DNA of 64,000 nt from an uncultured Gemmatimonadota bacterium (GTDB lineage: Bacteria; Gemmatimonadota; Gemmatimonadetes; Gemmatimonadales; Gemmatimonadaceae): positions 62,001 to 126,000 of the forward strand of contig CADEFN010000006.1 in assembly GCA_902826615.1 (NCBI GenBank), read 5' to 3'. The position numbers and the translations under genes were made by a program. A model generated the notes under the pieces. The model worked only from the letters and a program-made list of their open reading frames with translations. It had not been told where the DNA came from and did not search any database. This document shows positions 21,802-28,224 of the stretch, piece after piece (positions within the stretch are counted from its first letter, which is position 1; each line of letters opens with the position of its first letter).

Positions 21802-21830
21802 GGGCCCCGCGATCGCGGGGCCCTTTGTTT
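21802..21830. terminator. Intrinsic terminator after etfA
   Basis: A perfect 22-base palindrome (two 11-base arms meeting at CGATCG, positions 21802-21823) is followed by TTTGTTT. It lies between the convergent etfA and M28 peptidase genes. The T-rich side follows etfA, and the hairpin may act in both directions. The M28 stop codon begins inside the T tract. Confidence 0.85.
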
Positions 21831-22902
21831 ACCGAATGCGCGCCTCCACCAGCCTGGCCACGGCGCCTAACGTTGTCTGCATGGCGTTGAAGCCGAGGCG
21901 GAAATCGGCGTCGGAGAAGGAGACGTAGAGGTCGGTGGCGCGATGCCAGTGCGGGTTCGCTCCGCGTCCGGTTTCGAACAGGCGTCGATTCTCGCGCAAG
22001 CTCACGGCAGCGACCAGGTCCTGAAAGGGGCCCGAGTCGGTGTTGCTCATGGCGTTGCTCATGGCCGCCGGATAGTCGGTCGCGAAAAAGCGGTTGGCGT
22101 TCAGCAGCTTGAGTGCCAGCTGCGCCGATTCGTCGGCCTTGGCCGAGTTGAGCTGGAACTCGATATCGACATCTGCGTCGAGGGTCTGGTTCCACTGCAC
22201 GGGCACCCCATGATCCCAGAGCATCATGTCGTGCTGAATCATGCCTAACCATTTGGGTTCCGGGTATTTGCCGGAGCCTTTTGGCTGCTCAATGCCCTGG
22301 AGCTTGGCGCGCTGGTCGACGTACGCGCGGGCCCCATTGAGTCCCGTTTCCTCGTTGTTCCAGAGCGCAAAGCGCACCGAACGATTCGTCGTCACATCGG
22401 GCGCGGCGAGGATGCGTGCGATCTCCATGACCAGCGCGGTGCCCGAGGCGTCGTCATTGGCCGCTTCGCCGCCACCTCGGCCATCCATGTGCCCGCCGAT
22501 GATGTACATCTCTCCCGGGGTAGTGCTGCCAATCTTTGTGGCGAACACCTGCTCACGCGGGGAGCCCTGGTAGTCGTACTTCACACGTTCGGTGGTGTAT
22601 CCCCAGCTCTTGAGTTGTGCTTCGATCCAGTCGTTGGCCTGGGCGTTTCGTGGTGTGCCCTGCTCGCGGTCGCCGAACTCTGTGAGTCCCTTGATGAGGG
22701 CCTTGTAGCTGGTGAAGTCGAGGCGGTCGACGACGCGCTTCACCGCGCTGTCGGCTGCTGTCATGTTCACACTGCCGAGTACTCCTCTCCCCGGCTGGCC
22801 GGGTTGTGGCGCCTGACGCTGCTGGCCTTGTTGCTGCGCCGGGGGTGTGGCTTGCGCTGGTAAGGCGAGGGGGAGGGCGAGGAGAATGACGAGTCGGCGC
22901 AT
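21829..22902 (-). CDS. Secreted M28-family zinc aminopeptidase
   Basis: The 357-residue protein is read from ATG 22902 (signal peptide RRLVILLALPLALPAQA, then a Gln/Pro-rich linker to about residue 40). Zinc ligands of the M28 fold are visible: H138 and D140 in GGHMDGRG, the bridging Asp in AANDDASG (about D150), the catalytic and ligand Glu pair E184/E185 in WNNEETGLNG, Asp in IQHDMMLWD, and His near the C-terminus (NPHWHRATD). It would trim amino acids from peptides in the periplasm or outside the cell. It is the last gene of a minus-strand series, 67 bases after the caspase-like gene. Confidence 0.92.
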   Translation of the reverse strand: MRRLVILLALPLALPAQATPPAQQQGQQRQAPQPGQPGRGVLGSVNMTAADSAVKRVVDRLDFTSYKALIKGLTEFGDREQGTPRNAQANDWIEAQLKSWGYTTERVKYDYQGSPREQVFATKIGSTTPGEMYIIGGHMDGRGGGEAANDDASGTALVMEIARILAAPDVTTNRSVRFALWNNEETGLNGARAYVDQRAKLQGIEQPKGSGKYPEPKWLGMIQHDMMLWDHGVPVQWNQTLDADVDIEFQLNSAKADESAQLALKLLNANRFFATDYPAAMSNAMSNTDSGPFQDLVAAVSLRENRRLFETGRGANPHWHRATDLYVSFSDADFRLGFNAMQTTLGAVARLVEARIR

Positions 22903-22969: not shown

Positions 22970-24982
22970 TCACGGGCGGGGTTTTCGCCGCACCACAAAT
23001 GATCGCGTGACAACTGTCCAGTCGCAGTCCACGGGCTCGTTGCGGCCAAGATCGCGCGTGGGGTTGCCGTTGAACACTGACGTCAGAAGGTCACCGAGCC
23101 GTGTGCCCCCGGTACGCAACGCGACCTGCTGCAAAACCGAGAAGTCGGTGGGCTTTTCAGTGACAAAAAGCCGGATGGTTTCTACCCCAACTGTTTCACG
23201 CGCGTTCTCCACCGACTCTGCGTAAGGGAAGTTCTCCGGCCAACGCACATCGAACACCATCCCCGGGCGCACATCATAGTCGAACGTGCCTTCGGCGCGC
23301 AGCGGCACCTGGGCACGCGCTTCCTTGTAGGGATGAATCGACGTCACGGCGCCGCTGATTCCGAAGTCGATGAGTGTGACAAACACCGGGGCGTTGTGTG
23401 TGCTGGTAACCCGGAACGCGATCTTGTCGCCCTCCTCGTACACCACCTGCCCACCCGCCTCTGCCGGAACCGCCACTTCGGGGACGCCTGACGCCGGCAC
23501 CCTGAGCAGCTCGAGTGTGAACTTGCCCTGCAGGAGCGAGTTGGGGTCAGGGTTGTTGATGGCCAGCCCCTGCCGGTATCTCGCAATCTTCTCGAGGTTG
23601 CTCCGAATCGCGGTTTCCTCGCCGACCCGCTTGAGTGGTGCCACCAGATTGCCCAGGCTCGACGTCACCGCCCACGTGGGTGACCGCAACGCACCGGCCC
23701 CGGGTACGGGGTCACCGTCGCGCACCTCGTTGCGTGCGGGAAGCAGCGTGAGTCGCACTCCATCGCCCGCTTCGGTCACCAGCTCCACCAGCGTGGAGTC
23801 GAGCAGCTGGGCACGCAGCGCCTGAACGGCAGCCTCGCCACTGTCGGGCAGCGCAACCCGCAAGCGGAAGTCGCCGAAGGCGTGTGACACTTCGAACGCA
23901 CGGGCGTTGGCGACAATGGCTCCCGGTGTGCCTTCGCTCGTTATGCGTCCCTCGGCGTTCAGTGCCGAGACGGCGGTGATTTCGATTTCTCCGAGAGTGG
24001 TGCCGGGCTCTGCCCGTTTGGCGCCAATGGGCTGGATGGAATACCTGGAACCCGTGGTCACCCCATGTGCCGCGCCCGCTGAAAAGGTGACCCGCTCGCC
24101 ATTGCGTGTGGTAACCGGGAGGTAGCGCATCGGCTCAAACTCCGACGTGCCGAACAGGACACGGTCTCCCTTGCCCTCCATCTGCGGGTGCTGGCTCGAT
24201 GAATAGGCCGTTACCTGCGCAGCCGCGGTCTCGAAGACGTCGCGGTACGTGGTGGTGGGCCCGGCCTTGAGCATTTCGCGCGTGAGATGCCAGGTGAGCG
24301 CGCCATGAGGGACGATCTTGCCGTCGATGGTCGCCCGGTACTCGGCGCTCTCCTCGGTGTCGCGGCAGCCGGCAATGAGCACGTGGGATTCACTCACCGC
24401 AAACCAGCCGCTGGGGCCTGACGCCTGCTGCTCGCGCGGGGCGAGCGGGGTGCGCTCCTTCAGCAGCTCTTCACGCGTGCGAGTGTCGGGCGGCACCGAA
24501 CGCACAGGTACATCGCTGCCGCTGTCGCGGGTGATTGTGCCCGAGTGACAGCAATCAAAGATGAGGGTGATGAAGCGGGTGCGCGCGGCCAGGGCTTCGA
24601 GCTGCAGCGCGATTTCATCGTCCGTGATGTCGCGATTGTTGCCACGCCAGCCGCCACTGTCGTGCGGCATGATGGTGCTGTCGTACCCCGAGGGTTCGTC
24701 GTACTCGAGGTCAGTCATCTGACTGCCGTGACCGGCGAAGTACACCACCACGATGTCGTCTTTTGCCGTGGACTCCACCAGCGTCTTCAGCGCGCCGAGG
24801 ATGTTGTCGCGCGTGGCCTCCGCATCGGTGAGCAGGGAGAGGTGCTCGGCGGCGAAACCAAATGGCTGCTGCAAGAGCGAGTGCATGAGATGTGCGTCAT
24901 TCACGCACCCGGTCAGCTGCCGTTCCGGTGGAAGAAGCGGATACTGATTGATCCCGATGACGAGCCCACGTTGTGCTGGCAT
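22970..24982 (-). CDS. Caspase-like (metacaspase/orthocaspase, C14) protease with DUF4384-like C-terminus
   Basis: The protein has 670 residues. The N-terminal p20-like domain (about 1-270) shows the catalytic His85 in VVYFAGHGSQ and Cys145 in IFDCCHSGTI, with DGD-like acidic loops between them. This is the full dyad of an active cysteine protease that cleaves after basic residues in the metacaspase group. The C-terminal region (about 520-640, GDKIAFRVTSTHNAPVFVTL, later GMVFDVRWPENFPYAESVE) resembles the DUF4384 beta domain that often follows prokaryotic caspases. No signal peptide is seen, so it is probably cytoplasmic. It is downstream of a Ser/Thr kinase and a short repeat protein on the same strand. 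Confidence 0.9.
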   Translation of the reverse strand: MPAQRGLVIGINQYPLLPPERQLTGCVNDAHLMHSLLQQPFGFAAEHLSLLTDAEATRDNILGALKTLVESTAKDDIVVVYFAGHGSQMTDLEYDEPSGYDSTIMPHDSGGWRGNNRDITDDEIALQLEALAARTRFITLIFDCCHSGTITRDSGSDVPVRSVPPDTRTREELLKERTPLAPREQQASGPSGWFAVSESHVLIAGCRDTEESAEYRATIDGKIVPHGALTWHLTREMLKAGPTTTYRDVFETAAAQVTAYSSSQHPQMEGKGDRVLFGTSEFEPMRYLPVTTRNGERVTFSAGAAHGVTTGSRYSIQPIGAKRAEPGTTLGEIEITAVSALNAEGRITSEGTPGAIVANARAFEVSHAFGDFRLRVALPDSGEAAVQALRAQLLDSTLVELVTEAGDGVRLTLLPARNEVRDGDPVPGAGALRSPTWAVTSSLGNLVAPLKRVGEETAIRSNLEKIARYRQGLAINNPDPNSLLQGKFTLELLRVPASGVPEVAVPAEAGGQVVYEEGDKIAFRVTSTHNAPVFVTLIDFGISGAVTSIHPYKEARAQVPLRAEGTFDYDVRPGMVFDVRWPENFPYAESVENARETVGVETIRLFVTEKPTDFSVLQQVALRTGGTRLGDLLTSVFNGNPTRDLGRNEPVDCDWTVVTRSFVVRRKPRP

Positions 24983-25035
24983 GTGCCTTGTTCCAATGTG
25001 ATGAAGTGGGGCCGCGGCTAACCACGTGTTGCAAG

Positions 25036-25063
25036 GGCCCCCGGCGCACGCACGCCGGGGGCC
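25036..25063 (-). terminator. Strong hairpin between the repeat protein and caspase genes, possible attenuator
   Basis: Two perfect 11-base GC-only arms flank a six-base loop (CACGCA on the plus strand). No long T tract follows in the minus direction, only TTGC. It probably slows or partly stops RNA polymerase before the caspase gene, or protects the upstream mRNA end, rather than ending transcription fully. Confidence 0.5.
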
Positions 25064-25068
25064 TGGAG

Positions 25069-25350
25069 TTAGTGGGGGTATTTCTTTGGTGGTGGTTGCG
25101 GATCACCGTCGCCCCGCTTCGGGGGCGGTGCCGGCGGTGGGGTGTCCCCGTCCCCTCGTTTGGGCGGTGGAGCCGGAGGAGGGGTGTCTCCATCGCCTCG
25201 TTTGGGTGGTGGAGCCGGAGGGGGAGTGTCTCCATCTCCTCGTTTGGGAGGCGGAGCGAGTGGCGGCGCGTCGCCATCCCCGCGTTTGGGTGGTGGCGGG
25301 GAAGGAGGAGAGCCCCCCTCTTCGATTTCCGGCGATTCACCAGCGGTCAT
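25069..25350 (-). CDS. Small proline-rich protein with tandem KRGDGD repeats
   Basis: The 93-residue protein has no homologue that I can name. After an acidic lead (TAGESPEIEEGG) it consists of five copies of a unit KRGDGDTPPPAPPP (14 residues, 42 bases). The first copy is slightly changed and the last is cut short before a basic tail PKKYPH. The chain should be extended and disordered, with polyproline stretches. The Thr before PPP in three units is a possible phosphorylation site for the kinase whose gene ends 24 bases upstream. The frame is supported by its position between two co-directional genes and by a TGGAG 8-12 bases before the ATG. It may be a linker or scaffold between kinase and caspase. 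Confidence 0.68.
   Translation of the reverse strand: MTAGESPEIEEGGSPPSPPPPKRGDGDAPPLAPPPKRGDGDTPPPAPPPKRGDGDTPPPAPPPKRGDGDTPPPAPPPKRGDGDPQPPPKKYPH
25102..25287. repeat. Tandem 42-base repeats coding the RGD units
   Basis: Four full units of 42 bases (25120-25287) and one partial unit (25102-25119) lie head to tail. The middle units are almost identical in DNA, differing at only a few third positions such as GGTGGAGCC versus GGCGGTGCC. Such near identity suggests recent expansion or contraction by slippage or recombination, so copy number may vary among strains. Confidence 0.85.
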
Positions 25351-25374
25351 CTGCGAGACTCCAGGTGGGGGTGT

Positions 25375-28224
<2,850 letters not shown>

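What the first reader, a model, noticed from the sequence alone, without database searches (positions are those of the whole stretch)
22970..28224. Kinase, RGD-repeat linker and caspase encoded in a row: a possible phosphorylation-gated protease module
A membrane Ser/Thr kinase with a large sensor half is followed on the same strand by a 93-residue repeat protein and then an intact caspase-like protease with a DUF4384-like C-terminus. The gaps are 24 and 86 bases. Threonines followed by prolines in the repeats are plausible kinase targets, and lysine-arginine in each unit is the kind of basic site that metacaspase-type proteases cut. The small protein could thus be both substrate of the kinase and of the caspase. 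That would link an outside signal to proteolysis, perhaps cell death or defence. The link is inference from order and motifs.
Basis: partly seen in the sequence, partly recalled or inferred. Interest (0 to 1): 0.7.

Follow-up and report, generated by a model that had tools for sequence, protein, structure and literature searches.

The report
Kinase, arginine-repeat protein and metacaspase module
Three neighbouring genes in a Gemmatimonadaceae bacterium (a membrane sensor kinase, a small protein made of repeated arginine-containing units, and a caspase-like protease) turn out to be a conserved unit in distant relatives, where the repeat differs in each species but keeps an arginine at which this class of protease is expected to cut.

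Summary
On the minus strand of a Gemmatimonadaceae contig lie a TPR-sensor Ser/Thr kinase, a 93-aa tandem-repeat protein and a C14B metacaspase, with gaps of 24 and 86 bp. The row is not chance: kinase orthologue, small repeat ORF and caspase sit in the same order in six further genomes, and probably in two more where the assembly breaks at the repeat. The caspase-linked kinases fall in one 100/100 clade. Each genome has its own 12-14-aa unit (KRGDGDTPPPAPPP, REGATAPPPAGG, RDPVAKPVIAED and others), under strong purifying selection within the genome (G091: 39 synonymous, 0 non-synonymous pair differences). Between genomes the shared feature is an Arg followed by G/D/E. The caspase keeps the acidic S1 pocket of Arg/Lys-specific metacaspases; in relatives it is mostly fused to a DUF7379 hydrolase and sometimes followed by CHAT and nSTAND1 genes, which suggests a conflict or cell-death module. 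Repeat units of five genomes contain no Ser/Thr, so the kinase-phosphorylates-repeat step is not supported. Best reading: the repeat protein is the built-in multi-site Arg substrate (or ligand) of the metacaspase, under a sensor gene that can be swapped. Cleavage is untested.

The parts
25375..28224 (-). Ser/Thr kinase (cytoplasmic kinase domain, one TM segment, TPR-type sensor half)
   Evidence: Pfam Pkinase 1.3e-45, TPR_11 weak; catalytic motifs and TM; full-length orthologues 43-56 %
25359..25364 (-). ribosome-binding-site-like ctggag of the repeat gene
   Evidence: sequence; similar motifs stand before most of the repeat ORFs of relatives
25069..25350 (-). 93-aa tandem-repeat protein, Pro 38 %, presumably disordered
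   Evidence: no Pfam, PADLOC or NCBIfam match
25102..25287 (-). repeat array KRGDGD(T/A)PPPAPPP: five KRGDGD copies, period 14 aa
   Evidence: (five exact matches of the PPKRGDGD pattern, only here in 119 genomes)
22970..24982 (-). metacaspase/orthocaspase (C14B) with DUF4384-like C-terminus, no fused hydrolase in this genome
   Evidence: Pfam Peptidase_C14 2.8e-28; A1 alignment; PDB matches Metacaspase-4, Metacaspase-1, TbMCA2
24548..24550 (-). catalytic Cys145 codon (DCCHSG)
   Evidence: invariant in A1; aligned with AtMC4 Cys139
24728..24730 (-). catalytic His85 codon (AGHG)
   Evidence: invariant in A1
24554..24556 (-). S1-pocket Asp143 (AtMC4 Asp137, TbMCA2 Asp211)
24341..24343 (-). S1-pocket Glu214 (AtMC4 Asp352), invariant
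24896..24898 (-). Asp29 of GCVND (TbMCA2 Asp95), invariant

Best explanation
The three genes are one inherited module. A membrane kinase with a TPR sensor half receives a signal. An Arg/Lys-specific metacaspase, in most relatives carrying a C-terminal alpha/beta hydrolase, is the effector. The small repeat protein is the metacaspase's own dedicated multi-site ligand: a disordered chain of near-identical 12-14-aa units, each offering an Arg followed by Gly, Asp or Glu to the acidic S1 pocket, which the active protease is expected to cut after. Shown here: module conservation, coding status and selection on the repeat, the shared Arg, the pocket residues. Inferred: cleavage itself, what it achieves (loss of a brake, or release of peptides), that the kinase or its substitutes control the caspase, and the conflict/cell-death role.
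For: Kinase-repeat-caspase order in G000, G003, G091, G055, G007, G272 and G377, and by matching contig ends in G039 and G366. The nine caspase-linked kinases lie in one 100/100 clade with only G181+G410 without caspase; 2 label changes against 7.7 in shuffles, 0 of 500 as low. The caspase tree repeats the sub-clades G055/G272/G377, G007/G039 and G000/G003. Arg followed by G/D/E in all 11 unit types, 0 of 20000 within-unit shuffles; never followed by Pro (p 0.02) although units are up to half Pro; Lys is most often followed by Pro. pN/pS within arrays 0-0.33 in nine of ten arrays. S1-pocket D143 and E214 and the pair C26/D29 invariant. The repeat goes with the caspase even without the kinase in G381 and loses its tandem form where the caspase is gone, G410 and G181. 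Precedent: orthocaspase MaOC1 degrades the antitoxin encoded next to it (PMC7935541). Partners CHAT, nSTAND1-WD40, TPR-S, DUF7379.
Against: No cleavage was tested. If the protein were only a string of cut sites, the spacer residues would not need to be conserved, yet the whole unit is (G091). A few units lack the Arg (G039 GGGD units, one His in G366). Two loci (G359, G474) have a helix plus Pro-rich tail instead of repeats, and G034 has no such gene. Related kinases without a caspase also have a small Pro-tailed gene downstream, so the gene may have begun as a kinase partner. One pocket position (TbMCA2 Ser156, AtMC4 Ser84) is Ala. The units were chosen by eye or regular expression and are not phylogenetically independent.
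Confidence: 0.45

Rival explanations
1. The repeat protein is a partner or scaffold of the kinase (Pro-rich tail binding), not a protease substrate; the caspase merely joined the operon.
For: Many related TPR kinases without a caspase are followed by a 50-140-aa ORF with a Trp-containing helix and a Pro-rich tail; the small proteins of caspase loci G474 and G359 match an HMM of those companions at 38.5 and 19.6 bits, best of 300 shuffles 8.2.
Against: The Arg tandem repeat occurs in G381 without a kinase nearby and is not kept in G181/G410 where the caspase is absent; the repeat proteins proper lack the helix.
Confidence: 0.2
2. Pseudosubstrate inhibitor (antitoxin-like): the Arg units occupy the S1 pocket and hold the caspase off until a signal removes the protein.
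For: Same pocket-fit evidence as the best explanation; gene order inhibitor-then-effector; in AtMC4 the enzyme's own Lys225 blocks the active site in this way (PMC7206013).
Against: Gly, Asp or Glu after Arg in a flexible chain looks cuttable; nothing marks the units as uncleavable.
Confidence: 0.15
3. Peptide precursor: cutting at each Arg frees many copies of one species-specific 12-14-aa peptide that acts as an internal or released signal.
For: Whole units, not just the Arg, are kept within a genome (39 synonymous, 0 non-synonymous in G091) while they differ between species; AtMC4 cleaves Propep1 after Arg69 (PMC7206013).
Against: No signal peptide seen in the repeat protein; no receptor identified; unit length and make-up vary widely.
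Confidence: 0.12
4. Phosphorylation-gated cleavage: the kinase modifies Thr in the units and so opens or closes the Arg site.
For: Thr in units of G000, G003, G091, G055 and G007; kinase intact.
Against: No Ser/Thr in units of G039, G366, G272, G377, G381. G381 has no kinase nearby.
Confidence: 0.08

Closest known systems
Prokaryotic orthocaspases / metacaspases (MEROPS C14B), e.g. MaOC1, AtMC4, TbMCA2
   Same: His-Cys dyad, GCxND and DxCHSG motifs, acidic S1-pocket residues; MaOC1 also acts on the product of a neighbouring gene (PMC7935541)
   Different: DUF4384-like C-terminus, mostly fused DUF7379 hydrolase in relatives, coupled to a kinase and a tandem-repeat gene
Type I metacaspases with Pro-rich N-terminal prodomain (PMC6426788)
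   Same: a Pro-rich repetitive stretch lies just before the protease
   Different: here it is a separate gene, with an Arg in each unit and no Cys for a zinc finger; homology not shown
Caspase + alpha/beta-hydrolase pairs of VMAP conflict systems (PMC7159879)
   Same: caspase and alpha/beta hydrolase go together; CHAT and nSTAND1 partners occur in some relatives here
   Different: no vWA, MoxR or VMAP gene among the neighbours scanned; the EACC1-type caspase model is matched far below its cut-off (47.7 against 140 bits)
TPR-CHAT (Craspase)-Csx30 and CHAT/caspase cascades of type III CRISPR (from memory, a lead only)
   Same: idea of a clan CD protease with a dedicated neighbouring protein substrate
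   Different: no CRISPR components among the genes examined; candidate substrate here is a disordered repeat

Membership tests
C14B metacaspase/orthocaspase | p20 domain with catalytic His-Cys dyad | tested here: met
   H85 and C145 invariant in 8 sequences; Pfam C14 2.8e-28; PDB profile hits are metacaspases and one Geobacter caspase-like protein, GSU0716
C14B metacaspase/orthocaspase | acidic S1 pocket for basic P1 | tested here: met
   D143 and E214 aligned with AtMC4 Asp137 and Asp352, D29 on the GCxND motif of TbMCA2 Asp95; the Ser at TbMCA2 156/AtMC4 84 is Ala83
C14B metacaspase/orthocaspase | cleavage after Arg/Lys | not testable with these tools
   needs purified enzyme
EACC1-associated caspase | NCBIfam NF047832 above cut-off | tested here: not met
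   47.7 bits against 140
VMAP ternary system | vWA, MoxR and VMAP genes nearby | tested here: not met
   window neighbours scanned are ETF, M28, ApaG, S9, amidohydrolase, hybrid histidine kinase
PASTA (PknB/Stk1) kinase | NF033483 above cut-off, PASTA repeats | tested here: not met
   307.8 bits against 450, match limited to the kinase domain; no PASTA in Pfam
PD-T4-6 defence kinase (PADLOC) | single-gene anti-phage kinase | tested here: inconclusive
   many PADLOC kinase models match the kinase domain only (residues about 18-315), as they may for any PknB-type kinase

The most novel reading that the evidence does not exclude
A bacterial caspase comes with a gene for a polyprotein of near-identical short peptides; on activation the protease cuts after each Arg and frees many copies of a species-specific 12-14-mer that signals (for example to the partner nSTAND1/TPR sensors or to kin), a bacterial counterpart of plant metacaspase-released immune peptides.
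Probability: 0.15. Interest if true: 0.9.

Novelty: new variant of a known kind. Interest (0 to 1): 0.62.

Why it matters
Natural substrates of bacterial caspase homologues are almost unknown. Here is a conserved operon-like row that appears to carry its own candidate substrate, with the expected cut residue repeated up to ten times and kept while most of the unit changes between species. That makes the substrate question directly testable with two purified proteins, and it links a transmembrane kinase, a metacaspase and a hydrolase into one module in a poorly studied phylum.

Tried and rejected
Exact DNA pattern for PPKRGDGD in 119 relatives: only this locus, because the unit itself is not conserved. 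AlphaFold2 of the caspase with 4 sequences: mean pLDDT 54, not used for pocket geometry or fold search. The search for related loci in genome contigs: only 3 relatives. Other caspases of this genome in the loci checked (L006, L007, L046-L049): no repeat ORF or kinase beside them within the stretch held. Literature searches for a described kinase-repeat-caspase operon, DUF7379 or a tandem-repeat metacaspase substrate gave nothing to the point; the library holds open-licence papers only. RGG/RNA-binding reading of the repeats considered: Arg-Gly is absent in the RDP-type and REG-type units, so not favoured. Thr-Pro phosphosites rejected as a conserved feature.

Full report
WHAT IS THERE. The window is part of a 5.9 Mb assembly (G000:C6:62001-126000); the nearest public records are titled Gemmatimonadaceae and Gemmatimonadetes. 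On the minus strand lie a Ser/Thr kinase (25375-28224), a 93-aa repeat protein (25069-25350) and a caspase (22970-24982), gaps 24 and 86 bp. Pfam gives Pkinase (1.3e-45), weak TPR, Peptidase_C14 (2.8e-28) and a sub-threshold DUF4384. The kinase has intact VAIK, HRDIKPDN and SDFG motifs and one hydrophobic segment starting at residue 308, so its TPR half should lie outside the cytoplasm (topology is inference). The repeat protein has no match in Pfam, PADLOC or NCBIfam. It is the only tandem-repeat ORF in the window besides its antisense shadow, out of 578 ORFs. There is no terminator-like site in the gaps. The next gene on the strand, an M28 peptidase (about 21829-22902), and the other neighbours (ApaG, S9 peptidase, amidohydrolase, ETF) are ordinary.

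THE ROW IS CONSERVED. A search of 119 relatives with the caspase and inspection of the loci showed a kinase orthologue matching over its full length (43-56 % identity) directly upstream of the caspase in G003 (L031), G091 (L032), G055 (L033), G007 (L035) and G272 (L052/L085). Wider searches added G377 (L087). In G039 and G366 the kinase contig ends inside a repeat ORF and another contig begins at or just before the caspase; in G039 both ends show the same KGRGGDAAP unit. This joining across contigs is inference. In each of the seven readable cases (window included) the gap holds a small repeat ORF, and a ribosome-binding-site-like motif is visible before most of them. Counting all loci of this caspase subfamily with a readable upstream side (15), 12 have a tandem-repeat ORF (two of them, G272 and G386, with only two clear copies), 2 (G359, G474) have a short helix plus Gly/Arg/Pro tail, and 1 (G034) has a CHAT gene instead. 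Kinase coverage is narrower: 9 of the 15. G386 has a partial homologue of the sensor half, G359 a TPR protein without kinase domain, and G381 no kinase within 4 kb.

CO-INHERITANCE. A maximum-likelihood tree of the kinases' sensor halves (29 sequences) puts the nine caspase-linked kinases in one clade with 100/100 support that contains only two unlinked ones, the sister pair G181 and G410; the label needs 2 changes against a shuffled mean of 7.7 (0 of 500 as low). The caspase tree repeats the sub-clades G055/G272/G377, G007/G039 and G000/G003. Simplest reading: one origin and one loss of the caspase. The caspase itself has a wider life: it also occurs behind a CHAT gene (G034) and behind a TPR-S-caspase (G381).

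THE REPEAT. Each genome has its own unit: KRGDGDTPPPAPPP (G000), RGGDTPPPPAPPG (G003), REGATAPPPAGG (G091), RGGDIAAPPGPG (G366), RGGDAAPQAVKG (G039), RDTTAAPAPNKGRG (G007), REGDAPPPPGGG (G381), RDPGAKPTSGGD (G055), RDPLPKPVEAID (G272), RDPVAKPVIAED (G377), a longer Gly-Pro unit with REG and RQG (G386) and GRGQGDASG (G471). The RDP-type units are those of one sub-clade of the kinase tree, so the arrays look like diverged descendants of one another. Within arrays the protein is conserved: pN/pS 0 to 0.33 for nine of ten arrays, and 39 synonymous against 0 non-synonymous pair differences in G091. Caution: units were picked by a regular expression, which trims variants; one search used shorter anchors and gives the same picture with more edge variants, and the degenerate 5' part of the G039 array gives 0.54. 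Across genomes the constant feature is an Arg followed by Gly, Asp or Glu: all 11 unit types tested, 0 of 20000 within-unit shuffles; no Arg is followed by Pro, while Lys most often is. Ser and Thr are missing from the units of five genomes.

THE PROTEASE. The eight-sequence alignment keeps H85 and C145 and also C26, D29, D143 and E214 invariant. A profile finds Arabidopsis metacaspase-4, metacaspase-1 entries, metacaspase-9 and T. brucei MCA2 in the PDB. By that alignment D143 is AtMC4 Asp137 and E214 is AtMC4 Asp352, two of the residues that form the pocket holding Lys225 in AtMC4 (PMC7206013). C26 and D29 fall on the GCxND motif, which I take to hold TbMCA2 Cys92 and Asp95 (PMC4357240; the TbMCA2 alignment itself was not printed, the mapping goes through the printed AtMC4 and metacaspase-1 alignments). 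C14B enzymes cut after Arg or Lys (PMC4357240, PMC6426788). AlphaFold2 gave a poor model (pLDDT 54) and was set aside. In G003, G091, G007, G034 and G381, among others, the caspase continues into a DUF7379 alpha/beta hydrolase with a CHSRGG motif; the window protein, G272 and G377 lack it, and the window genome has a separate DUF7379 gene at C4:327216. CHAT genes follow in G091, G272 and G377, and nSTAND1 genes with WD40-type C-termini in the last two. Caspase paired with alpha/beta hydrolase is a described theme of bacterial conflict systems (PMC7159879).

WHERE THE SMALL GENE CAME FROM. Related TPR kinases that have no caspase are often followed by a 50-140-aa ORF with a Trp-containing helix and a Pro-rich tail. 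A profile of nine of these recognises the small proteins of caspase loci G474 and G359 (38.5 and 19.6 bits; best of 300 shuffled sequences 8.2). So the gene probably began as a kinase companion, and in the caspase-linked lineages the tail grew into an Arg repeat. Where the caspase is absent inside the linked clade (G181, G410), an ORF is still there but not tandem (score 4, against 29-101 in most arrays and 12 and 5 in G272 and G386). That is one evolutionary event and should not be over-read.

MECHANISM. Most likely (0.45) the repeat protein is a multi-site Arg substrate or ligand of the metacaspase. MaOC1, an orthocaspase, degrades the antitoxin encoded next to it (PMC7935541), so a neighbour as substrate has a precedent. 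What the cut achieves is open: removal of a brake, or release of many copies of one peptide. The second would explain why whole units, not only the Arg, are conserved. The kinase is probably an input that can be swapped (kinase, CHAT, TPR-S-caspase); the claim that it acts through Thr in the repeats is not supported.

VERDICT. New variant of a known kind (bacterial metacaspase conflict modules) with an unusual, apparently undescribed component. Limits: all evidence is sequence-based; most relatives are draft or metagenome assemblies, which break at such repeats; only Gemmatimonadota were searched in depth.

Noticed in passing
L111, L113, L116, L118, L119, L121, L126 (just downstream of the kinase): TPR kinases without a caspase have a small downstream ORF with a Trp-containing helix and mostly a Pro-rich tail: an apparently undescribed companion family.
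   Followed up: partly
G000:C4:327216-328661 (L091 7145-8668), L052 16284-17849: Stand-alone DUF7379 alpha/beta hydrolase genes in genomes whose caspase lacks the fused hydrolase (G000, G272); possible split effector.
   Followed up: partly
L081 3970-10118: Repeat gene followed by a TPR-S-caspase and a caspase-DUF7379: looks like a two-caspase cascade with a different sensor.
   Followed up: partly
window 25069-25350; L032 7452-7700: GC3 of the repeat gene (0.52 and 0.43) is far below that of its neighbours (0.74-0.85): codons of the copies look diversified, perhaps against slippage.
   Followed up: partly
L133/L036 (G039), L132/L086 (G366): Assemblies break inside or next to the repeat, so the gene is probably missed in many metagenome-assembled genomes.
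   Followed up: partly
L052 12159-16253; L087 11022-14942: nSTAND1 genes with WD40-type C-termini directly after CHAT genes downstream of the caspase.
   Followed up: no
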